Origin: Vicia villosa | Taxonomy: Eukaryota > Streptophyta > Magnoliopsida > Fabales > Fabaceae | DNA: 64,000 nt | Reading direction: 5' to 3' | Assembly: GCF_029867415.1 (NCBI RefSeq) | Contig: NW_026705461.1 | Location: 248,001-312,000, forward strand | In this document: piece by piece, positions 40,645 through 63,664 of the stretch | How the letters are laid out: every line of letters starts with the position of its first letter | Numbering within the stretch: position 1 is the first letter of the stretch | Translations under genes and position numbers: made by a program | Notes under the pieces: generated by a model | Database searches by the model: none | What the model saw: only the letters and a program-made list of their open reading frames with translations | Told to the model about the DNA's origin: nothing

Positions 40645-40953
40645 GATTTAAATTAGATTTAAGAGTGATTCAAATCATGAAATAAATGTGAAATTCAAAA
40701 TTTACTTTTATAGAAGTGATTCGAATCAAACGTTTCCCTGATTCGAATCAGATGTAAGTTTGATTCGAAATAAATAAATATCTTATTCAAATCATGGCTG
40801 AAATTTCATTTTATGATTTTGATTCTGGTTGTTTGATTCAAATCAAGACTTTTCTTGACTCGAATCAAATGTACAAAATTTGTGTTTTAAGTTCTTGATT
40901 CAAATCATTATCTCATTTGACTCAGATCATGATATTTTCTCTTGAATCGAATC
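40645..40953. repeat. Paired-palindrome array, GATTCGAATC type
   Basis: Copies of GATTCGAATC or one- to three-base variants begin at 40645, 40667, 40718, 40740, 40762, 40784, 40835, 40857, 40897, 40919 and 40944. Successive distances are 22, 51, 22, 22, 22, 51, 22, 40, 22, 25 bp. The array lies in non-coding DNA of unknown element identity. Confidence 0.85.
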
Positions 40954-40960
40954 ATAAGGG

Positions 40961-42322
40961 TCATTTTACCCATTTTTAGTGCATTGACTCAAGCACATTT
41001 ATAAATTTCTCTCTAGCTCAAAACCTCATAACTTTGAATGGTATTCAAAAACCTTAAAATATGATTTTAGAAAACACTTTTTTAAAATCTGTAGATTGCA
41101 ACTGAAATCAATTCATCTTCAACCTCTAGCATATCATCATTCTTGAGTGTGCTAGTCAATTCGAAGGGATTGTGAGATTTTTTTGGGAGGAAATTCATTA
41201 GGAGCTAATATTTTGTGAAGTTGAGTTTCAGATCAAAGAATCATGTTGTGATTGTGTAGATGAGATTGAAAATCCAACAAACGGAAAAAGAGTTTTTTTT
41301 CTTGTCCATTGAATATTTTTGTAGAACTGAGTGAATGTTGCTATAAATGGAATTGGGAGTTTTCGTTACTTTAGATTAGACTAAGAGCTCGGACAAGGGA
41401 CTTGCAGTAGGGTTCAGTGAAGAACGTTGCGAACAAAAGCTTGGAGCGAATTTTTGTTCTAGGAAGGTTAACATTCAAGATTAGATGAAGGTCTTGTGAA
41501 GTTCTCGCTCGTGAGTTGTTTACATCAGAAGAAGAACATTCAGATTGAAGCTTCTTAATTGTGCTTTTTATTTTTCAGCATTATCTAATTCCTTGATTGT
41601 ATTAAAACACACGTTGTAACAATTGTTAAGTTGTGGAAGACTACGAAATTTAAAGTTCACCATTGAAGACTTAATTAGGCGCAAAACAAAGACAAACGCG
41701 TTGAACAAGTGTAAATACTGACACATTATAGTTTTATCGCTTGTTGTAGAATTGCATGTTGCTATATTTTATTAGTTTATAGCGATTTATTTGTAAACAT
41801 AGGCCTGAGATAGATTCAATCATTTAATTCATCTTTCTAGTGATTTATTACTGTTTGTACTTTGTAATATTAGATTGACTATTTGATTAATAAAATTCAA
41901 TTTGAACATCTCATATAAATTAAATTTGGTTGATTGATTCATTGATTAGCCAATTTCATCACGATCCAGAAAAATAAGGTCGACCTAGTCATGTCCGACA
42001 AAATAGTCTTATAACTCCGCACGACCTACTAGGGCAAGAAGCGGTTATATATATCTACCACGGCTAGGCAAAAATAATTACTTTTTTAACAAATAATTTT
42101 AAAGAATCCTCATTTACACCTGCAGGCATAATCACCAATATTGTACTTGTTGGAAATTATGAGCATTAATTTCATCAAGTTATGTTCCAAAATGAAAAAT
42201 GTGAGAATGGCAATAAATGCTTCATAAATAGTCCCACATAGAAAGTGGAGCAAACTTTAAAAGCATTTATAAAGTACTTGGAACAATGTACATTCCAAAA
42301 GGAGCCAAAGAGATAAAGTGCC
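40961..42322. other. Non-coding, probable LTR or leader debris
   Basis: No coding region. 42149-42322 begins TGTTGGAAATTATGAGC and could be the start of another copia-type LTR cut by the Athila LTR. The rest could belong to the element that carries the palindrome array at 40645-40953. Not resolved. Confidence 0.3.
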
Positions 42323-43560
42323 TGTTGAAAGAGTATTGTGGTGTACTTTTCGTTTATATCGTATCCACAGGGATTATTGCGATATCACCGCCGTTCTATA
42401 GCCTATTTTGTCTTGAGTTAATGTTACTTTAGTTTTAGGTTTGCAAAAGATCATTCAATTCTTTTAGTAGCAAAGAGTAAATTAATGAAAGTTCTAAGTT
42501 AAAGAAAATGTATCAAGATTCGATTTCATCGACCTAAATTTGTATGTTTCCTTATAAATAGATGCTTATGAACTTGCTAACGATCAATATAATTACGTAT
42601 CGACACCTATATCGTCCGTGTCCGCAACGATATAGTTAGATTTACCGTATTGTTTAACCGACGATTTCTCCACCGTTTAAACAATACAAATAACGTTTTA
42701 AGAACCGATACTTAGTAAACATCAAACTCTAAATCCATGTCTGCAACTTATAGTTTGAAAGATGATTAGTTAGGTCTAGATACAAACATTGATGTCTCAA
42801 ACATTTATACCAAAGGAAAAGCTTTAATAAACAAACTAAACCATCTATATTGATCATCACTTGTCCATAAACATATATTCACAAGAAAAACATACAAATG
42901 GCTAGGAAGATTACATCTTATCTTGATACAAAAGGGATTTAGCTATCCATGAGAATGGTAGCTTGCACAAGAAGGTAAGGATGAAGATCAACAAGCATCA
43001 AAGGCGATTAATCGACGATCAAGGCTTCCAATCTTCAACTCTATATTTGCTACAGTGTATATTGCTCTTGTTTCTCTCTAAAATATCTCCAACACCTCTC
43101 AAAAGTGATCTGGCCCATAAACAAATAAACAAAGTTTCGCATACCGCGCTTAGCGCGGTGCAGCCCGCTAAGCGCGCTATCAATAATTGCTTAAACCGCC
43201 CAACCGCGCTAAGCGGGCTCCAGACCTCGCTTAGCGCGGAACTCTCTGCCAGAACTTCTTTCTTTTCTTCAAAAGCGCGCTTAGCGGGCTCAACCCCGCT
43301 TAGCGCGCTACCTCTTTTCAGCAATCCTTGGCTTTGGTCTTGGAACATCATCAAAGTGCTTTTTCCATGGTCCAAGCTTCCAATTATCTATAAAAACTAC
43401 AAAATCCAACATAGATTGCAAAGATAAGAACTATTCAACAATAATATAAATATAAGAATAAATATATACCAAATGACAATAAAATACTACTATTAACCAC
43501 AAAAAGACTTGAGAGTTACCAAAAATTACCTAAGATATTTACACAAATTGGTAACTAACA
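42323..43560 (-). repeat. 3' LTR of the Athila element
   Basis: 1238 bp, opening TGTTAGTTACC at 43560 and closing CTCTTTCAACA at 42323 on the minus strand. It is preceded by AAAGGTTTAGTTGGGGAGAG, a purine-rich tract suitable for plus-strand priming. No second LTR is in the window, so the lower boundary rests on the TG/CA rule and the purine tract. Confidence 0.65.
43146..43306. repeat. Paired-palindrome array, CGCTAAGCG type, in the Athila LTR
   Basis: Six copies with cores GCTTAGC/GCTAAGC starting at 43148, 43167, 43208, 43229, 43279 and 43298 (distances 19, 41, 21, 50, 19). Each core is extended by CGCG or CCCG arms, giving 13-16-bp near-palindromes such as CCGCGCTTAGCGCGG. GC-rich in an AT-rich LTR. 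Confidence 0.9.
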
Positions 43561-44124
43561 ACTCTCCCCAACTAAACCTTTATTTGTCCTCAAACGAAAA
43601 CAAACACAAAAACAATCAACAAGCAAAACCAAGAGAGCACAAGCTAAGACAAGAACAAATGGGTGGTTCAAATTCCGTAAGCACACAAGCAACATCTCAC
43701 CCTTGCTCAAATAATACCATGCTTGAGATACTAATACTAAATACACAATTGATGTAAACAGCTCCTAAAACAAAATAAGTTCAAAATTGAATCACAACCT
43801 ACACACTTCTCTAGTAAGAGACAAAATTGAGGACCTAACACTCACACAACAATGTCGCCAACATCCAGAATTAATTATGCAATCATCTACACAACATTTA
43901 TATAAAAAGCGTAAAAGCAAGAATCACAAAGACTTTAGGGTTGAAACTTGGGTTGGTTAACAAGGAAGTGTCATTTCTCAAGGCCATTGAAACAAAAGGG
44001 GTCAATTCCTAAGAGAGCATTCAAATCATGATTATATCCACACATCCTTATCAACCGATCACACAATTTTATTGCTCAAGAGTTCATCTTTTTATTTTGT
44101 TGGAACTAGCTATATACAAAGCTC

Positions 44125-44212
44125 TTCTCTTTTCCTTTTTCTTTTTCTTTTCTCTTTTTCTTTTCTCTTTTTCTTTTTCTCTTTTTCTTTTTCTCTTTTT
44201 CTTTTTCTCTCT
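44125..44212. repeat. Pyrimidine microsatellite (TTTTTCTC-like)
   Basis: About 88 bp of pure T/C on the plus strand (purine tract on the Athila sense strand) in the 3' non-coding region. It could act as an extra polypurine tract, which is inference. Confidence 0.9.
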
Positions 44213-45123: not shown

Positions 45124-46305
45124 CTACTCATCCTCATCATCTTCCACATTCTCATTCTCGCCACCATCTCCCTCCTCCTCAGGAAATGGACTGACCTCAG
45201 GCCAATTAGCATAATCCACCAAATCTTGGCGAGAACTCCACGGATGAGCCACATGGGGCTCCATCATCTGCAACCTCAGCTGAGACATAGCGTCATGCAT
45301 AAACATGAATGCTCTCTGATGTGCCATATGAAATGCCAAGTTCTCCTCTCTATCAGGATCACTACGGCGGCGAGCAGGGCGAGCAGCAGCAACAGGAACA
45401 GCAGTTAACCTGGATAAACAATAACGCTCAATAAAAGTATCATCAATAAAAGTGTCAATGGACATAAGCCCCTCAGAAGGAATCTGCACTCTAGCTTTCC
45501 TGCACAGATTCATGATCAAACCCGGGAATATCAACTTGCAGGGAGCACGATCACCATGGCGAGTTCCACTCAAAGCAACCCTCTTCAGCTCATTCGCAAT
45601 AATGCGAGTAATATCAATCGGCTCATGCTCAATCATACGAGCAACCAAAGCAGCAGACTCAGCAGGTAAAGAAGAAGTGTGACTCCTAGGCCTCAAATTA
45701 TGAAGGACCACAGACATGAGAATCTGAGCATTAGTAGACAACGACTTCCTAGAGAATTTCTGGGGCTGCTGTGAAGGATTAAGATCATAAGATTGCCCAA
45801 CCGAACACAAGACCTCCCTCAGATGTTCCCAATCGAAATTACCCCTTGCTAATTGCACATGATACCCACACAGCTCACCATCCTCAAAAGGTAATTGAGT
45901 TCCAAGAAACTCACGGATAGCCTGACGAGAAAAATCAATTTCCTTACCACGCACCCAAGTTTTGAACTCAAAGGGAACACCTTCAACCGGAAATTCTTCA
46001 TTTGGAACGGCATTAGCATAGAACTCTCTTACAATCTCCAAATGAAACTTAGGTGCAGGCTCACAAAGTCTAAGCCAACCATACTCCTCAATGGTGCGAT
46101 GACACCATCCATAGGTTCCCTCAGGATTGATCCTCACAATTCGCTCTGGCCACCATGTCCTAACCTCTAACTTCTTGTACCTTGCCTCCTGGACATGACT
46201 CTTAAAACGGTTTTGATTAAACGGAATAGCCCTAGGTGCTTGAGAAGAACTGCCACCTTCGGTTCCGGTCTTTCTTTTCTTAGAGCCCAGGAATTTCGGT
46301 CCCAT
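45124..46305 (-). CDS. Athila accessory ORF (putative plant transposon protein domain)
   Basis: 393 codons, intact. Starts MGPKFLGSKKRKTG, with a short basic stretch. A folded domain over about residues 35-290 shows the blocks RIVRINPEGTYGWCHRTIEE, FEFKTWVRGKEIDFSRQAI and LSTNAQILMSVVLHNLRPRS, then LIFPGLIMNLCRKARV. This order is that of the 'putative plant transposon protein' family (PF20167-like) found after pol in Athila/Calypso elements. The tail is acidic (EEEGDGGENENVEDDEDE). No transmembrane helix is seen, so it is not an evident envelope protein despite its position. Function unknown. A 5' leader with CGCTAAGCG palindromes (46463-46490) lies just upstream. Confidence 0.8.
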   Translation of the reverse strand: MGPKFLGSKKRKTGTEGGSSSQAPRAIPFNQNRFKSHVQEARYKKLEVRTWWPERIVRINPEGTYGWCHRTIEEYGWLRLCEPAPKFHLEIVREFYANAVPNEEFPVEGVPFEFKTWVRGKEIDFSRQAIREFLGTQLPFEDGELCGYHVQLARGNFDWEHLREVLCSVGQSYDLNPSQQPQKFSRKSLSTNAQILMSVVLHNLRPRSHTSSLPAESAALVARMIEHEPIDITRIIANELKRVALSGTRHGDRAPCKLIFPGLIMNLCRKARVQIPSEGLMSIDTFIDDTFIERYCLSRLTAVPVAAARPARRRSDPDREENLAFHMAHQRAFMFMHDAMSQLRLQMMEPHVAHPWSSRQDLVDYANWPEVSPFPEEEGDGGENENVEDDEDE

Positions 46306-46462: not shown

Positions 46463-47035
46463 GCGCTAAGCGCGCCTACCGCGCTAAGCGGGCTCTGCGA
46501 TTTGCAGAAAAAATCCCCTGCGAACCAGGGTTTCATCCATGCATTTCCAGCACCCAAATATGATTCTAAACAAGCACAAAGCACTGGAAACCAGATTGAA
46601 TCACTAAGTTTTCAAAATAACAACCCTAACCACAAAATTTCTATTCCTAAACTAAAATTAAACCCTAATAAATAAAACAAGCATAAAGAAATAGCAAAGG
46701 AAATGGAGAAATTACCTTGGTGAAGATGAAGGAGAAGACAAACAAGGAATTTGAATGCTAAGCAACACAAAAATGGAGAAACAAAGAGAGAAATTTCTTT
46801 AGGAGAGCAAAATGAGGGAAATGAGGCAACAAGACCTCAAAACCCTATTTTCTCCACTCAGAAACGTGCTGGGCCGGGTCAAAAACATAAAGGCCCAAAA
46901 TTGCAATATTTTTTTTTCTGAAAAACCAACCCGCGCTAAGCGGGCTCTGAAGCGCGCTAAGCGCGCAAGTCTCTGGAACTTGGGGTTCCAAAATTGCAAA
47001 AGCGCGCTAAGCGGGCTAGTGGCGCGCTAAGCGCC
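46463..47035. repeat. Paired-palindrome arrays flanking the spacer upstream of the Athila accessory ORF
   Basis: GCTAAGC cores start at 46465 and 46483 (18 bp apart) and at 46935, 46956, 47006 and 47026 (distances 21, 50, 20). The same motif and geometry occur in this element's LTR at 43146-43306, so 12 copies are spread over LTR and internal region. Confidence 0.9.
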
Positions 47036-47226: not shown

Positions 47227-47537
47227 TCAAGGATCACCAAACGATAAAACACAAGTTTCACGATTAAAATCGCATCCTCGATAAACCTTCAACCTCTGAC
47301 CATTAACTACCCATTCTTGCTTTGATTTTTGGTCCTCTATCACAATAGCCCCATGGCTTCTAACCTCTTTGACCAAAAACGGTCCGGACCATTTAGACTT
47401 CAACTTTCCCGGAAAAAGTCTTAACCGGGAATTGAAAAGTAAAACTAATTGCCCTACCTTAAAGTCCTTCATTCTAACCTTACTATCATGATAGAATTTG
47501 GTCTTTTCCTTGTAAATCGAATTAGACTTATAGGTGT
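47227..47537 (-). pseudogene. Athila integrase C-terminal end (truncated pol)
   Basis: Open from the truncation point near 47537 to the stop at 47227: YKEKTKFYHDSKV then FKVGQLVLLFNSRLRLF, PGKLKSKWSGPFLVKEV and VNGQRLKVY. This is the DNA-binding tail of Athila-lineage integrase. All upstream pol domains are missing from this copy. Confidence 0.85.
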
Positions 47538-50500
47538 GGACCGTCCTTTCGGGCCATACCCCTCCGTGGGTGGGATACGTGAACTGACTCTTTTTTGTCG
47601 ATCGGACGCTTTCGCGTCACTTTTGAAAAAGTTTACAGAGTCGCCACCGACCTTTTATTTTATCCAATGAAGGAAAGGTTTATAAAAGAAACAGAAAAAA
47701 GACCTTTGAGAGATTCTGGGTAAGGGGGTAGGTTATACAAAGGGAAGGTGTTAGCACCCTTTGTATCCATGGTTATCCATGGGCTCTTTAGTTTGCTTAG
47801 CTCATTTGCTTTACTTTTCAATTGATTCGGAATGCTTTACCTGTGTTTTTGAAATACCTTTGCAAATAGAATTTGTAATGATCCTTGTGCGGATATATAC
47901 AAATGCTTGTTTATCTTTCGAAAGATGTTTTGAAAAGATCGTTAATTTTGTAATGATCCGTGTTTGGATGTATACAAAATATTGTCTTTTGGAAAATTCG
48001 TTTTAAAAAAACAACAGTGTATGAGAATTTTGTTTGTTTTGATTTTGAGCAAGCAAACTAGGAGGTCTACCCTGAGTTAGGAGGTCTTTATCCTTGTTCC
48101 CTTTAAAAATCTATCCATTCGTCGGATATAAACAAAAGGTTCGATTTTGTACTCGAAACAGTAGAAATGTAACTTTGATTTTGAAAAGAGTGAAAAGGGG
48201 TTACCCTAGGAGGTGCAAATGTGATTGTGATTGAATTCAGATATTTATCTTTGAAGTTAGTGATCTGACGGTTCAGTTTTATCTTTGACATACACGCAGT
48301 TTATATGGGTGCTGGAAATTAAAATGCGGAAATGTAAAGTGCAGAAAGTAAATCTACGCTATTACATCGATTGTGCGGGAAATGTAAACTAGCCTATTTA
48401 CATGAATTTGACATCCTATACATTTATCTAGGAATTTTAAATTGCAAGAAATAAAAGGCATATTTTTGTATTTTTGTGATTTATTTTAAATATAATTAAT
48501 GCATTATTAATTAATTTAAAATAAAGAAAAGATGGAAATATGATTAAACCTAGCAAATAAGTTTAAAAATATGTACAAAATGTTTGTTAATTGATTTTAG
48601 AACAAAACTAATTTTTTTTGAATTTTTGAAATTTGTTTTTGGATATTTTAAGTTAATCAAAACATAATTATGCAAATAATTACACAAATAATTAAAACTT
48701 AAAGAGAAAATTATCCTAAATATGTACAAAATTAGTTTATGATATATAAACAATATTTAACACAAAGAACAATTTTTTTTATGATTTTTTGACTAATTAA
48801 AATAATTAATAAGCAAATATACAAATACATACTAATTAATTATGAAAAATATTGAAATTTTGAAGAAAAATAAAATATTTTTGTTTCATAAAATAATATA
48901 TTATTTTAGAAGTTTAAAATATTTTTTGTGGAATTTTTGGAAGTTTTTAACTATTTTTAATTAATTTATCAAAGAAACTAAAATAAAAATAGAAAATAAA
49001 ATTAAAAAATATAAGGATACTGATCTGGTGTGGCAATTAATGAAGGAGCATGGTGAGCTTGCATGTGTGAGGCGTTGGATTGGCTTTGAGATTGATCCAA
49101 GGGCACAGATTTGTAGGTGCATGGTATGATGGTGTACACTGAATCCAAGGGGATTCAAAGTCTTTGCAGGGGCCCACGCTGGATTGACCAGCGAATAAGA
49201 TTTGAGGGAAGGGCCACCTTGGCGCGCTGAAAAGTCAGACGAACCACGCTTGGACGCGTGGTCGTCTTCAACCTCCAGAAGTGAGGTTTTCAGCTTCAAA
49301 TAGCGGGGGTTTTTAACCTCCCCTATTTGGACGTTAAAATTCCAGTTTTTTAACAACCTATGAACCTGCAAAAAAATACGAGTTAGCGATAGAAACAAGT
49401 GACCCAGATCCACTAATTAGAGTGTCCTGAATCCAAATATGACATTTGTTTTAAGGTTTGAAGCTCCTAGCTATGGATACGAAGAAGATGAAGCTTAAAC
49501 ACTCATGGACTCGTTTTAATGGTGGAGCCTGATCCTCACGTTGGAACACTCATGCTAAGGCCCAGATCACACATATAGGTCCCCATAAGGATGTTAGGGT
49601 GGTTAGTTTGCAGTGAAATTAGTTGCATATACAAAAACGAAAATAAAACTCATATGTACATGAAGAGCTTTAAGTGCTTTATACGACTCTCATATGTCTA
49701 TATTTAGAGCTCAATCTTACTCTATAATGTTTGAGGAGATGATTAGAAGTGTTTATTGGTATTGATATTGATTGGAAATTTGAATTTGAAAATTACAAAG
49801 TATATGCAAATTTTGAGAATTTTTGTGATATTTCTTGCTATACTCTTGCCCTATTTCGTGTGTCCTCCCGTCTGTCCTTCTATTGTGGATGTATGATGCT
49901 TCTTTTATAGCCCAAAGTTGCTTGGAACTCAAGCTAAGAAGCTTTGTTGTCTTTGTTGAAAGTTTGATTTTTAAAATATTAAAAATCTTTGAATTGTTGA
50001 CCAAGCTTGACTCCATTCAATGCTCTTGTCTTGCTCTTCAATTCTTGCAGAAAAAATGAAGATTCCTTGAAGTGAGTCATACTTGGAGGCCAAGCAACCA
50101 TTATCCATGCATTTTCCTTTTAATTTTAATCTTAAAGTAAGATAAAATTATGCAAAAAATGGCCAATAAAGATGTGGGCTTTGTCTTGGTCGTGGGGGGC
50201 CCATAGTAACATGGCAAAGATGTTTGGACCATAAAAACTTGGCATCTTTTGGAAAAAAAACATTTTTGAGCAATGTTGATTTCATGCATTTTCCCAAAAT
50301 TTAGCCAACTTCAACAAGGTGTAAATCCTTCAATTTTTGTCATATGAAGGAGATCTTGCACTTTTTGGAAACCTCAAAGAGTCCTCTAACCAATGTCTTT
50401 GGTCTCATGTCAAAATGATTTTTGGTTCTCCTTGTGTGTCCATTTGAAAAAAGTGTCTTTTTGTTGACTTTGAAAATGACCTGTAATGTCTTTGGCCATA

Positions 50501-51533
50501 TTTTTCAAATGGTGAATGCTATGACCATGGGATCAATTGCATTTGAAAGATAATTGAATTTCCTTCAAAATGAGCTTTGGTTGACATTTTTTGGATGAAG
50601 GATGAGAGAGTTATGATTAGTCAAAGTTGAGTTGACTTTTCAGGCAAAAACCCTAATTTTGAATCTTAGGGTTTTGTTGATTTTTGATCTTTCCTTGATG
50701 AATTGTGATCATCCAATGATCAAATGTTGAATCCTTTGACAAAATATGGACTTTGACAAAAAATTTCATTTTTGACTGTCAGTTGACTTTTTTGGTCAAA
50801 CGGGTCGTCTGTTGACTGTTTGAGCTGCTGACGGTGCGTCTGAGTGAATTGAAGTTTGAAAATTTGTATGATGGTACTTTGAGATGTATGGATGTATATG
50901 AAATCCATTTGAGCTCCCAAAACTTGTTGCTCCTGTTAAAACAAGAAAAACCCTGATTAGGGACTGTCTGTATAGGAGGCAGTTAAGCGTACCTGATTTT
51001 TGTGCAGTGTTGAGTTTCTGCTAATCATGTGATATTCAGAAGACTTCTAACACAAAAATCTTGGAAATTTGAATTGTGAATGATTGATTTGATTGTTTGT
51101 ACAAATCACTGTGAATTGTACTGTCTGCAGTTTGTCTGTCAACCGACTGTTCGTGTACTGAAGCAGCAGTTAAAGTGAAAAATCAACCGTCAAAGTTAAT
51201 TTTCTTCTTTTTTTTTTTTGTTGTTATTTTTGTTTTTGTTTGGTGTGAAGCATGAAAATTTATTTACATGACTTGTTAGAAAACAGAAACATAATAAATA
51301 ACTGATATTTACGGTATGCGGGCAAAATTACCGATAATAACCTGAAAATTATTTAATGCACAGAAATAGAAATATTTGACTGGCAGAAAATACACAAAAT
51401 ATTATCTTAGTAATTAAGCAATATTATGACAACTAGTACAACATTTAATACTGACAGTATAAATGTTACATACTATATTGAAAAGTACGACGAATAAACG
51501 GTACGTTTAAGAAAATAAGAAACACGACAAATT

Positions 51534-51701
51534 TTAAAAATGACGGTTGACGAACCATGCTATGATTAATAACATGTAGAGGAGTGGGAGTGCAACCATT
51601 GCAGGTCCACACTTCTCAGGACTGTGTAGGCAGAAGAAAGTCATGATCACCATAGCAATGGTGATGACTGTAAGAAACAGTGTCTCTATCCATTTTGCCA
51701 T
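51534..51701 (-). CDS. LTR-encoded two-helix membrane microprotein (hypothetical)
   Basis: 55 codons, minus strand, starting MAKWIETLF at 51701 in a good context (AGAATGGC). Two hydrophobic segments (about residues 5-25 and 34-51) are joined by a short polar loop HSPEKCGPA, and the tail is NRHF. A TATAAATA box at plus 51796-51803 lies about 95 bp upstream and is followed by a CT/CA-rich leader typical of plant 5' UTRs, so the ORF would be the first AUG of any transcript from this LTR. The longer in-frame extension to 52058 runs through the TATA box and is not believed. No known family is recognised. Neither expression nor conservation can be judged here. Confidence 0.5.
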   Translation of the reverse strand: MAKWIETLFLTVITIAMVIMTFFCLHSPEKCGPAMVALPLLYMLLIIAWFVNRHF

Positions 51702-51795
51702 TCTTGCTAGGAAAGAAGAAAGAAAATGGATGATGAAGTAGAAATTTGAAAGATGATTTAGAATTTGATGTGAGATTTGTGGGAAGAATGAGAGG

Positions 51796-52320: not shown

Positions 52321-52596
52321 CACTTGAAAGAAAAAGATGAAATGCTTGATATCCAAGATGGTTGGTTGATGGAAAAGGAAGATCAGATTCGTCATCAAGA
52401 AGAGTTGCTTCAACAACATGGTGAAAAGCGAAAGAGACCACAAGAAGATTCAGTCGCATGGAAAGAAGTTGCTGATAAGCTGATGGTCGAGAATGCTCAT
52501 TTGAAGGCCTTTTATGAAGATGAATTGGAGAAGCTCCGTAGGAAGCTGCAGAGAGGAGTTGGATCTTCATCAGAAGTGTTCCCTTCTAATTTTTAG
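52321..52596 (+). pseudogene. Ogre ORF1, C-terminal fragment
   Basis: Open from the junction at 52321 to TAG at 52594-52596. The readable 90 residues are charged and heptad-like (HLKEKDEMLD, EDQIRHQEELLQQH, ENAHLKAFYEDELEKLRRKL), a coiled coil as expected for the C-terminus of the ORF1 protein found upstream of gag in Ogre. The N-terminal majority is absent. The apparent ATG at 52297 lies in the neighbouring LTR and is fortuitous. Confidence 0.65.
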
Positions 52597-52751
52597 CTTT
52601 TCCTTTATTTTGTAATTTTGGATCTTTGAATCCTTTTGTATGCTTTTCCATGACTAATGAAAGAATATTGTTATGTTTTATGATGTTTTTGCTAATGTTT
52701 ACAATTAATGTCTTAAAAGTTCCTGGAAAACCAAAATAAAGATCATTTGCA

Positions 52752-53897
52752 TTGCATTTCATGCATCATTCTGCATTTTGGTCCTGCTTCCGAAAGTATT
52801 CCCGAGGTCTTATTCAGTGTTCTTCATACAGAATCAAGCTGTCTCACCGGTATAATACTCGAGCTAACTGCAAGAAGAAGATGGAAGGTCTTGAACAAGA
52901 GAATCGTGAGCTACGTGAAGAGGTTGTTACTTTGAGATCTGGTGTGGATCGTCTCACTGCTCTAGTTGAGACATTGATGGCTGCTCAGAATCAGAATCAG
53001 AATCAAGTTCCTACTCCCAATGCCCAAGCTCAGGGTCAGACCACTGTGATTTCTGAAATTGCTGCTACAACCATTCCTGCTGTTCCTGCTGGTGCTACTC
53101 AGCAACGAATGCCTAATGGATATCCCTGGGGCATGCCTGAAGGTTATTTGTCTGTTCCTGAGATGACTCGTCCGTTGACTCCTGTTATGGTCAACACCTC
53201 TCCTATTGTTCATACTGGTCCTTTTGTCCCAGAGCCCATTTATGATGCTTCTCCAAGTGAAATTCATGACAGAATGGATGGTTTCCAAGATCAGTTTGAA
53301 GAACTGCAAAAAGAGATGAAAGCCTTGCGTGGGAAAGAACTGTTTGGAAAGAATGTGCATGATCTTTGCCTTGTTCCCAATGTGAAAGTACCTGCTAAGT
53401 TCAAGCTGCCTGAATTTGAGAAGTACAAAGGAAATTCCTGTCCTCAGGCACACCTGGTGATGTATATAAGGAAGATGTCCACTCACACTGATGATCAACG
53501 TCTGTTGATTCACTATTTCCAAGACAGTTTGACTAGAGCTGCTTCTAAGTGGTATATGGGCCTTGATAGCACCCATATTCACACTTTCAATGACTTGGCT
53601 GAAGCGTTTGTGAAGCAATACAAGTATAATGTGGACATGGCTCCTGATAGGGATCAATTGCGAGCTATGATGCAGAAAGAGAAAGAATCCTTCAAGGAAT
53701 ATGCTCAGAGATGGCGTGAGGTTGCCGCCCAAGTGATTCCTCCGATGGAAGAAAAAGAGATGACTAAGATTTTTCTGAAGACTCTTGGTCCGTTTTATTA
53801 TGAGAAGATGATTGCAAGTGCTCCTGTAGACTTCACTGAAATGGTCGGTATGGGTGTCAGATTGGAAGAAGCTGTGCGAGAAGGTCGTTTGGTTTGA
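52752..53897 (+). CDS. Gag of the Ogre/Tat element
   Basis: Frame of 381 codons ending in TGA at 53895. The N-terminal coiled coil (MEGLEQENRELREEVVTL near residues 44-75) and a Gln/Asn/Pro/Thr-rich linker are followed by the retrotransposon gag domain from about residue 212 (KFKLPEFEKYKGNSCPQAH, LLIHYFQDSLTRAASKWYM, QYKYNVDMAPDRDQL, ESFKEYAQRWREVAAQV). The upstream residues YNTRANCKKK look genuine, so initiation is probably before Met44 (52881). The first in-frame ATG is 52752. The TGA interrupts a frame that continues, without shift, through the zinc-finger region and protease. Confidence 0.88.
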   Translation: MHFMHHSAFWSCFRKYSRGLIQCSSYRIKLSHRYNTRANCKKKMEGLEQENRELREEVVTLRSGVDRLTALVETLMAAQNQNQNQVPTPNAQAQGQTTVISEIAATTIPAVPAGATQQRMPNGYPWGMPEGYLSVPEMTRPLTPVMVNTSPIVHTGPFVPEPIYDASPSEIHDRMDGFQDQFEELQKEMKALRGKELFGKNVHDLCLVPNVKVPAKFKLPEFEKYKGNSCPQAHLVMYIRKMSTHTDDQRLLIHYFQDSLTRAASKWYMGLDSTHIHTFNDLAEAFVKQYKYNVDMAPDRDQLRAMMQKEKESFKEYAQRWREVAAQVIPPMEEKEMTKIFLKTLGPFYYEKMIASAPVDFTEMVGMGVRLEEAVREGRLV

Positions 53898-56063
53898 AAT
53901 GACAATTCATCTGGTGGTGCAAAGAAGTATGGTTCTTCACTCCAGAAGAAGAAAGAATCAGATGCTAATGCTGTTTCTCATGGGAGGAATAGTCGATTCA
54001 GAAATCAATCTCAACAAGTGGCGTCAGTGACTCCTGTTGTGAATTCAGTGCCTGTGGCTCCTGTTAATCAACAACCAGCAAGGCGGAATCCGTACCCTCG
54101 GATTAATATTGATCCTATCCCTATGACGTACACTGAACTGTATCCTGCTCTAATTCATAAGGAGCTGGTTCAACCAAGGTCACCACCTCCTGTGCCAGAA
54201 AAACTCCCTTGGTGGTACAAAGCTGATGCCACTTGTGCTTATCATCAGAATGCTTCTGGGCATGATTTGGAAAACTGTTGGGCCCTGAAGAATGAAGTTC
54301 AAAGATTGGTCCGTTCTGGAATGCTCTCTTTCCGTGATATTGGTCCAAATGTGAAGAACAATCCGTTGCCAACTCATGAAGCGTCTGCTGTGAATATGGT
54401 GCATGGATGCCCTGGGAAGTATAAAATTTATCGTGTGGAACACATCAGAGGATCATTGGTAGAGATGCATGCCACTCTGTGTGAATACAGTCATTATGAG
54501 CATAATCATACTGCTTGTAGGATTTGTTCAGTCAATCCTCGAGGATGTTATATTGTGAGAAGAGACTTGCAAGAGATGATAGATCAAAGGCTTATTGAGA
54601 TTCTGAGGGATAGAGATGAAGATGATGTCAATGTGATCGAACCATGCTTTGAAATCCCGGAATGTGTAGAGATTGGTTATTATGGCAAAGCTGCTGTGGA
54701 ACCTCTTGTGATATGTTTGCCTGGATCTGTACCTTATAGTTCTGATAAAGCTGTACCTTACAGATACAATGGCACCATGTTGGAAGCTGGAAAAGAAGTT
54801 GAGATTAAGCCTCTGTCTTCTGTGGAGAATATAGCAGATGTTAGTAGAGTGACTAGAAGTGGACGAGTTTTTACTCAGCCCCAAACAGTTGTGGATGTCC
54901 AGAGGAATCCTACTCAAGTGCCTGTGAACAATAATGATGCGACAAAAGTGAATGCTGGATCATCTTCAGGAAAGGAGATGGATGAGATTTTGAAGCTTAT
55001 CAAGATGAGTGATTATAAGATCGTGGATCAGCTGCATCGCACTCCGTACAAGATTTCTATAATGGAGCTGCTGGCGAATTCTCCTGCTCATAGGGATTCT
55101 CTGATGAAAATACTTGATCAAGCCTTTGTGGATCATGATGTGACGCTGGATCAGTTTAATGGGGTTGTGAGCAATATTACTGCATGTAACAATTTGAGCT
55201 TCAGTGATGAAGATTTGCCTGAGGAAGGAAGAAATCATAATTTGGCTTTGCATATCTCTGTCAATTGCAAAGAGGACTCAATGTCCAATGTGTTGATCGA
55301 TATTGGATCATCTCTGAATGTCATGCCGAAGTCCACTCTTGCTAAGCTGACTTATGGTGGCACACCAATGAGATTTAGCAATGTGATTGTCAAGGCTTTT
55401 GATGGGTCGAATAAATCAGTGGTCGGAGAGGTTGATTTGCCTATTGGTATTGGACCATTTGTCTTCAAGGTTACGTTTCAAGTGATGGATATTTTCCCTG
55501 CATACAGTTGCTTACTGGGACGCCCGTGGATCCATGAGGCTGGGGCAGTCACTTCAACTCTTCACCAAAAGTTGAAATTTGTGAAAGATGGAAAGGTGGT
55601 CGTTGTGAATGGAGAACAAGCTTTGCTGATTAGTCATCTCTCTTCGTTCCATACCATAGAAGCTGATGAAGTGGCCATTGGAACTGCATTCCAAGCCCTG
55701 TCTGTTAATGATGAATTCAAAAAGGATGAAGCTTCCATTGCCTCCTTTAAGGATGCTCAACTGGTGGTTCAGAATGGACATTCAGGAGTCTGGGGACAAG
55801 TGGTGAGTCTACAAGAGAACAGGAATAGAGCTGGTCTGGGATTTTGTGCCTCAGACAAGTCTGTGATGAAGTCTGAATCTGCTTTTCGTCCTTATCAAGA
55901 GATGTTCCATAGTGCTGGGTTCCTATACCCAACTCTTCCAGAGGTGGATGCTATTGTTGGAGACGAACCAGAGCCAGAAGTGCCAAACTTTGTTACCCAT
56001 GGAAAGATGATTAAGAACTGGGTCACCATTGACATTCCTGAGTGTACTCATGTCTCAAAGTAA
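53898..56063 (+). CDS. Ogre gag C-terminal part and aspartic protease
   Basis: Same frame as gag, open from after the TGA; the first ATG is 54018 (681 codons). Near residue 75 of that ORF a C-x2-H...H-x5-C cluster (CAYHQNASGHDLENC) resembles the gag zinc finger of Tat elements. A retropepsin-like domain covers about residues 405-520: VLIDIGSSLNVMP at the active-site position (D428-I429-G430), then AYSCLLGRPWIHEAGAV, the conserved L-G-R-P-W block. The canonical triad is D-(T/S)-G, so the Ile is a disabling-looking change. The frame closes at TAA 56061-56063 only if the intron is retained. Splicing at 56060 removes this stop. Confidence 0.88.
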   Translation, partial: NDNSSGGAKKYGSSLQKKKESDANAVSHGRNSRFRNQSQQVASVTPVVNSVPVAPVNQQPARRNPYPRINIDPIPMTYTELYPALIHKELVQPRSPPPVPEKLPWWYKADATCAYHQNASGHDLENCWALKNEVQRLVRSGMLSFRDIGPNVKNNPLPTHEASAVNMVHGCPGKYKIYRVEHIRGSLVEMHATLCEYSHYEHNHTACRICSVNPRGCYIVRRDLQEMIDQRLIEILRDRDEDDVNVIEPCFEIPECVEIGYYGKAAVEPLVICLPGSVPYSSDKAVPYRYNGTMLEAGKEVEIKPLSSVENIADVSRVTRSGRVFTQPQTVVDVQRNPTQVPVNNNDATKVNAGSSSGKEMDEILKLIKMSDYKIVDQLHRTPYKISIMELLANSPAHRDSLMKILDQAFVDHDVTLDQFNGVVSNITACNNLSFSDEDLPEEGRNHNLALHISVNCKEDSMSNVLIDIGSSLNVMPKSTLAKLTYGGTPMRFSNVIVKAFDGSNKSVVGEVDLPIGIGPFVFKVTFQVMDIFPAYSCLLGRPWIHEAGAVTSTLHQKLKFVKDGKVVVVNGEQALLISHLSSFHTIEADEVAIGTAFQALSVNDEFKKDEASIASFKDAQLVVQNGHSGVWGQVVSLQENRNRAGLGFCASDKSVMKSESAFRPYQEMFHSAGFLYPTLPEVDAIVGDEPEPEVPNFVTHGKMIKNWVTIDIPECTHVSK

Positions 56064-56326
56064 TTTGCTTTTATGTTTTTCAAAATCCTTTCATTCTGCC
56101 CAAGATGAAAGTGAAGTTGTTGGGGCTGTTTTCTGTTTGTTTTAAACATTAAAATCATCAATAAAAGTCATTTTGTTTCTGCATATAAATGCTTTTTATC
56201 TTTTTGCTTTTTCTGGAAAGTGGTAACACAAAAAACCTTAAAAAATGTTTTCATTCTCCATAATCTGCACGATTACATGTTTGCATATATCTTTCCTTTT
56301 TTATGAAATAATAATCACTTGTGCAG
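56060..56326 (+). other. Intron between protease and RT
   Basis: 267 bp, donor TCAAA|GTAATT, acceptor ACTTGTGCAG|ATTAATC, T-rich before the acceptor. Joining gives ...VSK|LINKTVESN with the reading frame kept from protease to RT. An intron at this position is a described peculiarity of Ogre elements and allows the ratio of Gag-Pro to Pol to be set by splicing. Confidence 0.85.
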
Positions 56327-59300
56327 ATTAATCAATAAAACCGTTGAAAGTAATGACCCTGCGCCCTCTCCCAACTTCGAGTGTCCTGTGTATGAGGCGG
56401 AAGAAGAGAGTGATGAATGTATTCCTGATGAGATTTCCCGACTGCTTGAGCACGAGGAAGACACCATTCAGCCGTATAAAGAGCCATTAGAAGTCATTAA
56501 CTTGGGTTCTGAAGAGGATAAAAAGGAAGTCAAGATTGGGGCACTGCTTGGTCAAGATGTTAAGAAGAGGATGGTAGAGCTTCTTAAAGAGTATGTTGAC
56601 ATTTTTGCGTGGTCCTACCAAGATATGCCTGGGTTGGACACAGATATTGTGGAGCATCGTTTGCCGTTGAAACCAGAATGTCCTCCTGTCAAGCAAAAGT
56701 TAAGAAGGAGTCATCCTGATATGGCAGAAAAGATTAAGAATGAGGTCTTGAAACAGATAGATGCAGGTTTCCTTGTCACTTCTATATATCCTCAATGGAT
56801 TGCCAATATTGTGCCCGTTCCGAAGAAAGACGGAAAAGTTCGCATGTGTGTTGATTATAGAGATTTGAATAAAGCCAGTCCGAAAGATGATTTTCCTCTA
56901 CTTCACATTGATATGTTGGTAGATAGCACGGCAAAGTTTGAGGTTTTCTCCTTCATGGATGGTTTTTCAGGATACAACCAGATTAAGATGGCACCTGAAG
57001 ACATGGAAAAGACAACATTTATTACACCATGGGGGACATTATGTTACAAAGTGATGCCTTTTGGGTTAAAGAATGCCGGTGCGACGTATCAGAGGGCCAT
57101 GACCACTCTTTTCCATGACATGATGCACAGAGAAATTGAGGTCTATGTGGATGACATGATTGCCAAGTCCCAGTCAGAGGAGGGGCACATGGAAGATCTT
57201 TTAAAATTGTTTCAGCGTTTGAGAAAGTATCGTCTCCGCTTAAATCCAAACAAATGCACTTTTGGTGTCCGTTCTGGAAAATTATTGGGTTTCATTGTCA
57301 GTCAGAGAGGAATTGAAGTAGATCCTGATAAAGTCAAAGCAATTCAGGAAATGCCAGCACCAAAGACTGAAAAACAAGTGAGAGGTTTCCTCGGACGTCT
57401 GAATTATATCTCCAGGTTCATTTCCAATATGACTGCTACCTGTGAGCCGATCTTCAAGCTTTTAAAGAAAAATCAGGGATGTGTGTGGAATGAAGATTGT
57501 CAGAAAGCTTTTGACAACATCAAAGAATATCTGCTTGAACCTCCCATTTTGCTCCCTCCAGTTGAGGGAAGACCTCTGATTATGTACCTCACAGTGCTTG
57601 AGAACTCAATGGGATGTGTGTTGGGTCAGCATGACGAGTCTGGTCGAAAAGAGTATGCAATATACTACCTTAGCAAAAAGTTTACCGAGTGCGAAACAAG
57701 ATACTCGCTGCTTGAGAAAACTTGCTGTGCTTTGGTGTGGGCTGCTCGCCGACTAAGACAGTATATGTTGAACCACACCACCCTATTGATTTCCAAAATG
57801 GATCCAATCAAGTATGTATTTGAGAAACCTGCATTAACTGGAAGGATTGCTCGCTGGCAAATGTTGTTATCAGAATATGATATTGAATACCGAGCTCAGA
57901 AAGTTGTGAAAGGAAGTGTGTTGGCAGAGTACCTCGCTCACCAACCAATTGATGATCGTCAATCTATCAGAATGGACTTCCCAGATGAAGATATAATGTA
58001 TTTGAGATCTCAAGATTGGGATGAACCATTGCCAGAAGAAGGACCAGATCCTGAATCCAAGTGGGGTTTAATTTTTGATGGAGCTTCTAATGTTCATGGC
58101 CATGGAATTGGCGCCATTATCATCACTCCACATGGATCACATGTTCCTTTCACTGCAAGGATATGTTTTGACTATACAAACAACATTGCTGAGTATGAAG
58201 CTTGCATCATGGGACTTGAAGAGGCCATTAATCTGAGAATTAAGATTCTTGATGTTTATGGAGATTCTGCGCTTGTGATTAATCAGATTAAAGGAGAATG
58301 GGAAACTCGTCATCCTGGTTTAATTCCTTACAAAGATTACGCCAGAAAGCTATTGACATTCTTCAACAAAGTTGAATTCCACCACATCCCTCGAGATGAG
58401 AATCAGATGGCCGATGCTTTAGCCACATTGTCTTCCATGTACAAAGTGAATTTCCATAATGAGGAGCCTCGGATAACAATCAGGCGTCTTGATAGACCTG
58501 CTCATGTATTTGCAGTTGAGGAAGAAAGAGATGAAAAGCCTTGGTATTTCGATATTAAGCGCTTCCTCCAGACTCAAGAGTACCCACTTGGGGCATCAAA
58601 TAAAGATAAGAAAACTTTGAGGAGATTGGCTGGCAGTTTCTTCATCAATGCTGATGTTTTGTATAAAAGGAATTATGACATGGTTTTGCTCAGATGCGTG
58701 GATAGACACGAAGCAAACATGTTGATGCATGAAATTCATGAAGGTTCTTTTGGTACTCATGCCAATGGACATTCGATGGCTAAAAAGATGCTTAGAGCAG
58801 GTTACTATTGGTTGACAATGGAATCTGATTGCTACAAGTTTGTAAAGACGTGTCACAAGTGTCAAGTGTATGCTGACAAGATTCATGTGCCTCCGACACT
58901 TCTCAATGTAATTTCTTCCCCATGGCCTTTCTCTATGTGGGGCATTGATATGATTGGCATGATTGAACCCAAGGCTTCAAACGGACATCGATTCATCCTG
59001 GTAGCAATCAATTATTTTACCAAGTGGGTAGAAGCTGCTTCATATGCTAATGTAACAAAGCAAGTTGTGGTCAGATTTATCAAAAACAACATCATCTGCA
59101 GATATGGTGTACCGAGCAAGATCATTACTGATAATGGCTCGAATCTGAACAATAGCATGATGAGAGAACTGTGTGAAAGCTTCAAGATTGAACATCACAA
59201 CTCTTCGCCTTATAGGCCAAAGATGAATGGAGCTGTTGAAGCAGCAAATAAGAACATTAAGAAAATTGTGCAAAAGATGGTTGTTACGTACAAGGACTGG

Positions 59301-59789
59301 CATGAGATGCTCCCATTTGCTTTGCATGGGTACCGTACATCTGTTCGTACTTCAACAGGGGCAACTCCCTTTTCTTTGGTTTATGGTATGGAAGCAGTGC
59401 TCCCTGTCGAGGTTGAGATTCCATCGTTGAGAATTTTAATGGAAACCAAGTTATCTGAGGCTGAATGGTGTCAGAGCAGGTTTGATCAATTGAATTTGAT
59501 AGAAGAAAAGAGAATGACGGCTTTATGCCATGGTCAGTTATATCAGAAAAGGATGAAGAAAGCATTTGATAAGAAGGTTCGACCTCGTGTATTCAGAGAA
59601 GGCGACCTCGTGCTCAAAAGGATCTTGTCTTTCACCTCCGATTCAAGGGGCAAGTGGACTCCTAATTTTGAAGGACCATATGTTGTTAAGAAAGCCTTCT
59701 CTGGCGGTGCATTAATTCTTACAACTATGGATGGAGAAGAGCTCCCACGTCCCGTGAATGCTGATGTAGTCAAGAAATACTTCGCCTAA
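56327..59789 (+). CDS. Ogre pol: reverse transcriptase, RNase H (two), integrase
   Basis: About 1154 codons, uninterrupted (numbering here from the upstream ATG at 56319). The RT has VPVPKKDGKVRMCVDYRDLN, FMDGFSGYNQI, and the catalytic Y-V-D-D at residues 276-279. The first, gypsy-type RNase H lacks its catalytic Asp (LIMYLTVLENSMGCVLGQ), as usual in Tat elements. A second, archaeal-type RNase H follows with FDGASN, NNIAEYEACIMGL, YGDSALV and DENQMADALA. The integrase has an H-H-C-C zinc site (HEIHEGSFGTHANGH...CHKC), a D-D-E core with D at about 877, D938 and E974 (35-residue spacing), and a C-terminal domain ending DVVKKYFA. No chromodomain. This part shows no obvious damage. Confidence 0.95.
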
Positions 59790-59951: not shown

Positions 59952-60550
59952 GGCAAAAGTTAGGGATTTATGGCAAGTAACTACATCAGACAAGATTTGA
60001 TCATCAGCAGTCATCTGTTTATCATGAAGAAGTTCAACACTTTTCAACGGAAGCCTTGGCTCAGGAATTCCCAGTTGAGAGAGAGGATGGGGTCATTACA
60101 TTTCAATGTACCTTTTCCACAAAATTACCACTTTCCAAACTTTGTAATAATCCATGGGGTCTTGCCTTTTGCAGGCTACCATTCTATTAAGAAAGTTTGA
60201 GCCTTTACCTTTCATTTGGCAATCTTATTTCTTTCATATCTCTCAAAATGTCATTTATTGTTGATAGTAATTTTTGAAACAAAGAGAAAATTGATTTCAA
60301 CAAAATCCTTTTGAAAATTATAAAAGAATTTTTACTTTGATTCATGAGTGCATTACAAGGAATGAATATGTTGATGTATTCATATGCAGAAGAATGTATT
60401 CCACTCAATGCACCTTCGGCCTGGTTCGAATATGGTTACTGCGTTCTCTCAACTTCAATATTCCCTAGCCATCAAAAGATTGATAGCAGTTTCTGCTATG
60501 ATGTTCAGTTTGGGACATGCTTGATTATGTCATCTTTGAACACCATCTCT
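59952..60550 (+). other. Ogre 3' non-coding spacer
   Basis: No coding region or repeat array recognised between the hairpins and the tandem array. Frames here are short and run into the repeat. Confidence 0.5.
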
Positions 60551-61995
60551 TTCATCGTCAGTGGTACGTCGATGAATTACATCTCTTCATATCATCAGTG
60601 GTACGGTGGTATATATCTCTTCATGCCTTCAGTGGAACGTTGGTATGTGTTATCGTCAGTGGTACGGCGGTACATCTCTTTCATCGTCAGTGGTACGTCG
60701 ATGAATCATCTCTTCATATCATCAGTGGTACGGTGGTATATATCTCTTCATGCCTTCAGTGGAACGTTGGTATGTGTTATCGTCAGTGGTACGGCGGTAC
60801 ATCTCTTTCATCGTCAGTGGTACGTCGATGAATTATCTCCTTTTATATCATCAGTGGTACGGTGGTATATATCTCTTCATGCCTTCAGTGGAACGTTGGT
60901 ATGTGTTATCGTCAGTGGTACGGCGGTACATCTCTTTCATCGTCAGTGGTACGTCGATGAATTACATCTCTTCATATCATCAGTGGTACGGTGGTATATA
61001 TCTCTTCATGCCTTCAGTGGAACGTTGGTATGTGTTATCGTCAGTGGTACGGCGGTACATCTCTTTCATCGTCAGTGGTACGTCGATGAATCATCTCTTC
61101 ATATCATCAGTGGTACGGTGGTATATATCTCTTCATGCCTTCAGTGGAACGTTGGTATGTGTTATCGTCAGTGGTACGGCGGTACATCTCTTTCATCGTC
61201 AGTGGTACGTCGATGAATTATCTCCTTTTATATCATCAGTGGTACGGTGGTATATATCTCTTCATGCCTTCAGTGGAACGTTGGTATGTGTTATCGTCAG
61301 TGGTACGGAGGTACATCTCTTTCATCGTCAGTGGTACGTCGATGAATTACATCTCTTCATATCATCAGTGGTACGGTGGTATATATCTCTTCATGCCTTC
61401 AGTGGAACGTTGGTATGTGTTATCGTCAGTGGTACGGCGGTACATCTCTTTCATCGTCAGTGGTACGTCGATGAATTACATCTCTTCATATCATCAGTGG
61501 TACGGTGGTATATATCTCTTCATGCCTTCAGTGGAACGTTGGTATGTGTTATCGTCAGTGGTACGGCGGTACATCTCTTTCATCGTCAGTGGTACGTCGA
61601 TGAATTACATCTCTTCATATCATCAGTGGTACGGTGGTATATATCTCTTCATGCCTTCAGTGGAACGTTGGTATGTGTTATCGTCAGTGGTACGGCGGTA
61701 CATCTCTTTCATCGTCAGTGGTACGTCGATGAATCATCTCCTTTTATATCATCAGTGGTACGGTGGTATATACCTCTTCATGACCTTCAGTGGAACGTTG
61801 GTATGTGTTATCGTCAGTGGTACGGCGGTACATCTCTTTCATCGTCAGTGGTACGTCGATGAATTATCTCCTTTTATATCATCAGTGGTACGGTGGTATA
61901 TCTCTCTTCACACCTTCAGTAGAACGTTGGTACGTGTTATCGTCAGTGGTACGGCGGTACATCTCTTCATATCATCAGTGGTACGATGGTGTGAT
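60551..61995 (+). repeat. 129-bp higher-order tandem array in the Ogre 3' UTR
   Basis: Eleven units start at 60551, 60680, 60807, 60936, 61065, 61192, 61321, 61450, 61579, 61708 and 61838 (period 127-130). Each unit contains four sub-repeats beginning TCAGTGG(T/A)ACG of 37, 34, 27 and 31 bp. Units occur in three variants in the order A-B-C-A-B-C-A-A-A-D-C, so a 385-bp period is superimposed. The long open frames here exist only because 129 is a multiple of three. Tandem arrays in this position are described for Ogre (for example the PisTR-A repeat of pea) and can seed satellites. Confidence 0.95.
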
Positions 61996-62260: not shown

Positions 62261-62390
62261 ATGCTTTATTATCATTACATGCATTCATTAACATTGCATT
62301 GCATCTTAGGATCAAAAATTGTGTTTTATATATTTAAGTCTCTTCGATTTTTGTCAAAACGAAGATTTCCAATCATCGTATCTCCAAATC

Positions 62391-62413
62391 GAAGAAACTT
62401 AAATAGGGGCATC
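62391..62413 (+). promoter_or_regulatory. Polypurine tract before the Ogre 3' LTR
   Basis: GAAGAAACTTAAATAGGGGCATC directly abuts the LTR start; AGGGGCATC|TGTC is the usual junction in this lineage as I know it. Confidence 0.7.
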
Positions 62414-62679
62414 TGTCATACCCCAATTTTTGACCCTAAGATCACACATCATTTGCATACCAATCATCAATCAAGAAGTTTTAACCTAGATCTCTACTTG
62501 CAATGCTGTGCTCAATTCATCTGCAAAGGAATCATCGAGCACCCATGTTTTAGTTTGTATATATTCCTTTACTAACCAAAATACCAAAAATATTGCCTTG
62601 TGCTCTTGTATGTTTGTGTTTTGTAGGTACCAAGTCAAAATACCCATCAAAGGAGCATTTTTCAACATTTTCACTGTGC

Positions 62680-62857
62680 AAATCGATTTGCATAAGGTGT
62701 AAATCGATTTACACAACTGTTTCTGCACCAGATTTGCTTCTGCCATCAGTGCAAATCGATTTGCATAAGACAGCAATCGATTTGCATAACTGTTTTTTCC
62801 CCAGATTTTGCCTTTTTCAGCCATGTAAATAGATTTGCATAAGGTGCAAATCGATTG
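62680..62857. repeat. Paired-palindrome array, AAATCGATTT type, U3 copy
   Basis: AAATCGATTT or variants start at 62680, 62701, 62753, 62774, 62827 and 62848. Distances are 21, 52, 21, 53, 21. Most copies are extended to GCAAATCGATTTGC or GTAAATCGATTTAC. Spacers share AACTGTTT and CCAGATTTTGC words. Confidence 0.95.
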
Positions 62858-63560
62858 CACCAGCACGAATTTGGAAAAATGAAGGCAAATTTCAGCTTTT
62901 TGAAGTGTTGACATCATTTGCAAGCATGGGAAGCATGACTTGGTTCTCACATTTGATTTCCTACATCATCTAATCATGTACCCTCATGTGATTGCATCAA
63001 GACCATTGGATTTCATCTTTGGCTCCAAATCACTTTTCCAAGCCTAATTCTATTTTCCAATCCTAACTCCAAGCCACAAAATTTCCCAAGCCTAAGTGCT
63101 ATAAATTGAGACACTCCCCTCTTCATTTTTCAAGCTTTGATAGCCAAGAAACTTATTGCAAATTCTCTCCTCACCTCTTCCAAACCCATCACTCAAAGCT
63201 CTTTCTCTTCCATACAAATTAGTGAGTCACATCTTGAACCTCACTAATTTAGAGCTAAACCTCAACATAAACACTAGTTTTTGCATCAATTGTGAGAGAT
63301 CAAGGCTTGTGGTTGTGTGTTCTTGAAGAAGATTCAAAGTTTGTGAAGATTTGGTAAAATTCTTGATCCTTTACATGATTCAAGATGTGATCCATTGTTG
63401 TTTATGCTTGATGCACCTTTGGTGCTACATTGATGAGATTTGCTTGCTTAATTGATACATTTTCGTGCACAAATTGATCCAAGATCACAAGGTGTTTGGT
63501 TTTATGTTTAAACAAGTTTTCTTCTCTTTATTTGCTGTTTTTTTGAAAACTGTGTTGTGC

Positions 63561-63664
63561 AAATCGATTTACATCTTGTGCAAATCGATTTACACAACTG
63601 AAAACTGCGCAGATTTTGAAAACAGAGTTGTGCAAATCGATTTACACTCTGTGCAAATCGATTT
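63561..63664. repeat. Paired-palindrome array, AAATCGATTT type, downstream copy
   Basis: Four exact AAATCGATTT at 63561, 63582, 63634 and 63655, with distances 21, 52, 21, identical to the spacing of the upstream array. Extended arms GCAAATCGATTTAC. Confidence 0.95.

What the first reader, a model, noticed from the sequence alone, without database searches (positions are those of the whole stretch)
40645..63664. Same paired-palindrome geometry in three unrelated retroelements, with different palindromes
Three arrays use unrelated words: GATTCGAATC (40645-40953), CGCTAAGCG (43146-43306 and 46463-47035, Athila) and AAATCGATTT (62680-62857 and 63561-63664, Ogre LTR). All are arranged as pairs 18-22 bp apart (about two helical turns) with 40-53 bp from the second member of one pair to the first of the next. 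Sequence is not shared but spacing is, which suggests convergent selection for a spatial arrangement (dimeric protein sites on one helix face, or paired small hairpins in RNA/ssDNA) rather than common descent. I know of no described element feature with this geometry.
Basis: partly seen in the sequence, partly recalled or inferred. Interest (0 to 1): 0.88.

Follow-up and report, generated by a model that had tools for sequence, protein, structure and literature searches.

The report
Paired palindrome arrays in plant retroelements
Three neighbouring stretches of plant mobile DNA carry rows of short mirror-symmetric DNA words, a different word in each but set at nearly the same distances, which most likely are landing sites for a protein; in one element that protein may be one it encodes itself, with a predicted shape resembling a known anti-silencing protein.

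Summary
The arrays are real: words cluster well above shuffled DNA (7, 6 and 6 copies in 400 bp; 40 shuffles gave at most 4, or 2 for the 9-mer). Within arrays, 25 of 25 steps are 18-22 or 40-53 bp at the thresholds used; strict pairing holds for CGCTWAGCG and AAATCGATTT, not GATTCGAATC. Spacers show no homology between families. Within the Ogre-like LTR the geometry is inherited: its two arrays share spacers, and 2 of 13 sister copies lack exactly one 21-bp unit. RNA hairpins explain geometry and orientation poorly.

The parts
40667..40953 (+). Array A: 9 copies of a TGATTCGAATCA-like word (<=2 mismatches in the 10-mer), steps 51,22,22,22,51,22,40,47; ends about 47 bp upstream of a TATA-like box at 41000; host element unassigned
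43147..43305 (-). Array B1: 6 copies of CGCTWAGCG in 3 pairs, in the Athila 3' LTR, 338 bp upstream of TATAAAT (42809, -)
42323..43560 (-). Athila 3' LTR, TGTTAG...AACA, purine tract TTGGGGAGAG just outside
   Evidence: read directly; ends placed
46464..46490 (-). Array B2a: one pair of CGCTWAGCG, 105 bp upstream of TATATAA (46359, -) and 159 bp upstream of the ORF's ATG
46934..47033 (-). Array B2b: two pairs of CGCTWAGCG, further upstream of the extra ORF
45124..46305 (-). [not shown]
62680..62857 (+). Array C1: 6 copies of AAATCGATTT (<=1 mismatch) in 3 pairs, U3 of an Ogre/Tat-like 3' LTR
63561..63664 (+). Array C2: 4 exact copies of AAATCGATTT in 2 pairs, 461 bp downstream of TATAAAT (63100), so probably in R/U5
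62414..64000 (+). Ogre/Tat-like 3' LTR starting TGTCATACCCC; runs off the window
52740..59789 (+). gag (PF03732), a 721-aa ORF with only a weak protease match (E 0.056), then RT-RNaseH-integrase in Ty3/gypsy order

Best explanation
The arrays are rows of dyad-symmetric binding sites for a sequence-specific nuclear DNA-binding protein, placed in the regulatory DNA of each element: upstream of the LTR TATA box, and in Athila also upstream of its extra gene. Sites two helical turns apart put neighbouring proteins on one face of the DNA; duplication and loss of whole units (21 bp, about 73 bp) copies the spacing within a family. For Athila the most likely ligand is the protein of the element's own PF20167 gene, which would bind its family's word to keep the element active or unsilenced, as VANC does for VANDAL transposons. 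Shown: arrays, word-limited conservation, positions, intact ORF, basic N-terminal clusters, a predicted fold resemblance. Inferred: binding, dimers, self-recognition, anti-silencing, and the extension to the Ogre-like element and to array A.
Confidence: 0.45

Rival explanations
1. Sites for host transcription factors: each element acquired its own enhancer word, as with the repeated U3 boxes of tobacco Tnt1; spacing reflects cooperative host proteins. No self-encoded protein is needed.
For: Position upstream of TATA-like boxes; dyad symmetry and word-limited conservation; symmetric repeated boxes are common in LTR regulatory regions (PMC2829016 and PMC10760457 passages); C has arrays but no element protein known to match them.
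Against: Three unrelated words with one spacing would need different host factors with like cooperativity; in B the same array also precedes the element's own extra gene.
Confidence: 0.3
2. Slippage-made minisatellites: palindromic words seed tandem duplication, and the agreement of 18-22 and 40-53 bp between families is a coincidence picked out by the reader.
For: C1 is a 73-bp tandem repeat; C1 and C2 spacers are related (P 0.037), B1 and B2 perhaps (P 0.063); two sister copies differ by exactly 21 bp; other palindrome arrays in the window have other spacings; only three families were compared.
Against: In A and B identity drops to background between words while words are kept, and TRF lists no repeat there; A's steps fit the others' bands with P 0.0002-0.001.
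Confidence: 0.2
3. RNA or ssDNA hairpins (dimerisation, packaging, or small-RNA precursors) are the selected feature.
For: All five arrays tested fold well on both strands (z -2.7 to -10.7); the real geometry is slightly more stable than randomised geometry in 9 of 10 strand tests; maize Sirevirus palindromes are small-RNA hotspots (PMC5311732 and PMC10760457 passages).
Against: With words fixed, no spacer or geometry test exceeds z -1.6, and flipped words are more stable than the real ones by about 2 sd or more in 5 of 10 tests, e.g. C2 + z 3.4; inverted and direct word matches show no consistent difference. Folding follows from the words being palindromes.
Confidence: 0.05

Closest known systems
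Palindromic repeated motifs (RMs) of Sireviruses (Ty1/copia), PMC2829016
   Same: A palindrome of its own in most elements, 8 to 32 copies, clustered in U3 upstream of the TATA box and, where an env gene exists, upstream of it; every word has a CpG (13 of 13 in its Table 3 by my reading, 3 of 3 here)
   Different: Reported as Sirevirus-specific, 12 of 13 with a CGG-CCG core; here Ty3/gypsy elements, other cores, and a two-turn pair spacing that the parts I read do not describe
VANC proteins and their motif arrays in VANDAL DNA transposons, PMC5735166 (passages), PMC10398659 (abstract)
   Different: A retrotransposon, not a DNA transposon; symmetric word; no sequence similarity found, no DUF1985/DUF287 match; binding and anti-silencing untested
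Athila 3' extra ORF with PF20167, sunflower, PMC11728184 (passages)
   Same: Same Pfam domain and position, basic nuclear signal; the authors mention VANDAL proteins as an example of extra-ORF function
   Different: The passages read do not connect the protein with DNA words or with the VANC structure
SIRC cassettes of Arabidopsis, PMC10342631 (passages)
   Same: Short direct repeats with diverse spacers inside mobile elements, some repeats palindromic
   Different: 211 of 2941 have palindrome arms of 4-9 bp; no paired two-step spacing in the passages read
U3 boxes of Tnt1 (mentioned in PMC2829016; details recalled)
   Same: Repeated, partly symmetric cis boxes upstream of the LTR promoter
   Different: Binding proteins there are host factors and spacing differs (both recalled, from no call)

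Membership tests
Sirevirus palindromic RM arrays | Host is a Ty1/copia Sirevirus | tested here: not met
   C: RT-RNaseH-integrase in Ty3/gypsy order with PF03732 gag; B: PF20167 ORF, a domain reported in Athila, its pol not examined; A: unassigned
Sirevirus palindromic RM arrays | At least 8 copies of one palindromic word | tested here: met
   A 9, B 12, C 10
Sirevirus palindromic RM arrays | Cluster in U3 upstream of a TATA box | tested here: met
   B1 and C1 338 and 243 bp upstream of TATA-like boxes; A 47 bp, LTR not proven. C2 and B2 lie elsewhere
Sirevirus palindromic RM arrays | Extra copies upstream of the env-position gene | tested here: met
   B2a, B2b upstream of ORF 45124-46305; not seen for C
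Sirevirus palindromic RM arrays | CGG-CCG core | tested here: not met
   Words GATTCGAATC, CGCTWAGCG, AAATCGATTT; Tnd-1 of the published set also lacks it
VANC anti-silencing system | Element-encoded protein with the VANC fold | tested here: inconclusive
   [not shown]
VANC anti-silencing system | DUF1985/DUF287 sequence domains | tested here: not met
   not among the 9 families matched by any of 16 members in Pfam at E <= 10 (HMMER filters drop most weak matches)
VANC anti-silencing system | Family-specific motif arrays in the element's noncoding DNA | tested here: met
   12 of 12 exact CGCTWAGCG in the window lie in the Athila LTR or upstream of its extra ORF
VANC anti-silencing system | Protein binds the motif and removes silencing marks | not testable with these tools
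   needs EMSA/ChIP and methylation data
Plain tandem repeat (minisatellite) | Spacers repeat along with words | tested here: inconclusive
   met for C1 (TRF period 73); spacer identity at background in A and B; B1-B2 spacers P 0.063
SIRC cassette | CRISPR-like direct repeats by CRISPRCasFinder and filters | not tested
   program not available

The most novel reading that the evidence does not exclude
Plant Ty3/gypsy retrotransposons carry VANC-like self-recognition systems: the 'env-like' extra gene of Athila encodes a VANC-fold nuclear protein that binds its own family's palindromic word, set in two-turn pairs in the LTR and before its own gene, to lift silencing. Word and protein coevolve, so each family has its own word but a shared spacing set by the protein fold.
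Probability: 0.3. Interest if true: 0.9.

Novelty: new variant of a known kind. Interest (0 to 1): 0.7.

Why it matters
If true, the unexplained extra gene of Athila-type elements would be a sequence-specific regulator or anti-silencing factor rather than an envelope, and the palindrome arrays would be its targets. That would explain why each family has its own word, join retrotransposons and VANDAL DNA transposons in one strategy, and give a direct test (protein plus array DNA).

Tried and rejected
RNA hairpins as the selected feature: disfavoured, though the real geometry is slightly more stable than randomised geometry in 9 of 10 strand tests (z +0.11 to -1.58). Homology of spacers between families: none found in 8 comparisons.

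External copies: two-word patterns in IMG/VR gave 9, 57 and 1 stretches, a three-word pattern 0. A three-word CGCTWAGCG pattern in GTDB contigs gave 40 loci. Of those, 31 have four or more words, with steps from 12 to 58 bp commonest; a few use 21 and about 40-42 (L091, L099), but the pattern itself demanded a short and then a longer gap, so they say little. blastn of the window against all 107 loci gave nothing at 1e-5. Queries with the Ogre-like pol protein and with PF20167 gave no relative in viral contigs, nor PF20167 in genome contigs. So no plant DNA outside the window was compared. Sister copies were reached only as proteins that read through the arrays (13 for C1, 1 for B1), which can show only indels in multiples of 3. 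Of the 13, 9 have no gap in the array, P0025 begins inside it, P0021 and P0027 lack 7 residues, and P0031 is diverged with a 6-residue gap.

Fold searches: the full-length protein gave only noise; the viral library gave E >= 0.7. The half-nucleosome length of the unit (about 73 bp) was considered, not tested. The paper on maize Sirevirus palindromes (Bousios 2016, PMC4728375) is not held; I know it only from citing papers. That I found no earlier account of these arrays in Athila or Ogre elements rests on searches of one open-access library. I opened passages, an outline or one section of 13 papers in all and read none whole; most listed papers were not opened, nor the 2 papers found by one search for the words as letters.
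Full report
What is there. The window is plant DNA, probably of a legume: the named relatives of its PF20167 protein are from Vicia faba, Vicia villosa and Stylosanthes. Array A (GATTCGAATC) has 9 copies at 40667-40953; array B (CGCTWAGCG) has 12 exact copies in three groups at 43147-43305, 46464-46490 and 46934-47033; array C (AAATCGATTT) has 10 copies in two groups at 62680-62857 and 63561-63664. In 40 dinucleotide shuffles no comparable cluster arose (at most 4 ten-mers or 2 nine-mers in 400 bp, against 7, 6 and 6).

Where they are. B lies in an Athila-type element on the minus strand. Its 3' LTR is 42323-43560 (TG...CA ends and a purine tract outside), and between the pol side and the LTR is an intact ORF of 393 residues (45124-46305) with Pfam PF20167. 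B1 is in the LTR, 338 bp upstream of TATAAAT; B2 is upstream of the ORF, with TATATAA and a TTTCAG acceptor-like sequence right before the ATG. C lies in the 3' LTR (from 62414) of an Ogre/Tat-like element whose gag and RT-RNaseH-integrase are at 52740-59789; C1 is 243 bp upstream of TATAAAT, C2 461 bp downstream. A ends about 47 bp upstream of a TATA-like box, but I could not assign it to an element: no LTR partner in the window and no retroelement domain in the 10 of 16 nearby ORFs scanned. Lineage names beyond the Pfam hits, and the naming of the LTRs, rest on general knowledge.

The geometry. B and C are strict pairs: 18-21 bp within, 41-53 between; A is not paired but uses like distances (51,22,22,22,51,22,40,47). 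With bands from B and C widened by 1 bp (17-22, 40-54), random placement of 9 sites in A's span puts all 8 steps inside with P 0.0002; uniform steps of 12-60 give 0.001. Other palindrome arrays in the window do not follow the rule (GAAATTTC 4 of 12, AGATGCATCT 0 of 3), and a copia array of TTCWGAA has a like period but 24/46. Helical phase: best period 10.45-10.5 bp for C (R 0.99-1.00), 10.05-10.1 for B (0.93, 0.98), 10.6 for A (0.74); at exactly 10.5 bp B1 is not phased (R 0.30), and C's value is inflated by duplication.

How the spacing is kept. Within C the two arrays share spacers (P 0.037) and TRF sees a 73-bp repeat, so there it is inheritance by duplication. Sister copies of the C1 LTR were found as proteins that read through it: 13 relatives; 9 without a gap in the array, one starting inside it, two lacking exactly 7 residues (one 21-bp unit), one diverged with a 6-residue gap. 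Words and spacers are about equally conserved among these and the window copy (0.86, 0.83), so recent copies show no selection on words. One Athila sister kept B1 without gaps. Between families, spacers are unrelated (P 0.10-0.60).

DNA or RNA. Identity between sites is mostly confined to about 12 bp in A and 17-18 bp in B and C; in B and C the dips at the first base outside the core mirror each other, as expected of a dimer's half-sites. All five arrays tested fold well as RNA (z -2.7 to -10.7). When words are held and spacers shuffled, stability barely changes (z -1.1 to +1.6); randomised geometry is slightly less stable than the real one in 9 of 10 strand tests but never beyond z 1.6; and flipping words at random gives more stable folds than the real ones by about 2 sd or more in 5 of 10 tests. 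Inverted and direct similarity of neighbouring words shows no consistent difference. RNA pairing is therefore a poor account of the geometry. All three words contain CpG in a CpG-poor window (observed/expected 0.55).

Verdict. A real and unusual set of cis arrays of a known kind (palindromic repeated motifs), in Ty3/gypsy elements and with a shared two-step spacing; most likely protein-binding sites. For Athila, a VANC-like self-encoded ligand is the best and testable idea. The cross-family rule rests on three arrays and needs a genome-wide test that could not be run here: I found no plant DNA in the collections scanned, and the genome search did not complete.

Noticed in passing
window 35223-35703: A palindrome-rich array of GAAATTTC (13 exact copies), partly an 85-bp tandem repeat, with spacings unlike the three arrays.
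   Followed up: partly
window 34494-34684 and 16182-16227: Recurrent AGATGCATCT palindrome, with two sites 36 bp apart in both places.
   Followed up: partly
window 3900-4243: Copia internal array, period 70 x 4.9, with TTCWGAA cores at 24 and 46 bp; like period, different phase.
   Followed up: partly
window 60544-61985: 129-bp tandem repeat, about 11 copies, between pol and the 3' LTR of the Ogre-like element.
   Followed up: no
window 47535-52321: LTR-like segment on the minus strand starting TGTTATACCCC, between the Athila and the Ogre-like element; no palindrome word reaches 4 copies in 400 bp in it, and by eye no clear target-site repeat.
   Followed up: partly
window 52237-52596: 119-aa ORF upstream of gag, coiled-coil-like with a KRKRP cluster, probably cut at its 5' side; possibly the remnant of an Ogre ORF1 (recalled).
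   Followed up: no
window 4945-6156: 403-aa minus-strand ORF of the copia element, after the integrase, with no Pfam match even at E 10.
   Followed up: partly
window 40045-40183: 70-bp tandem duplication (two copies, 84% matches) holding a TATA-like sequence, perhaps a doubled promoter of another LTR.
   Followed up: no
loci L068-L107: One uncultured Bacteroidetes assembly (CAJXLK) supplies 20 of the 40 loci with three CGCTWAGCG words, so it may use this palindrome as a genome-wide repeat.
   Followed up: no
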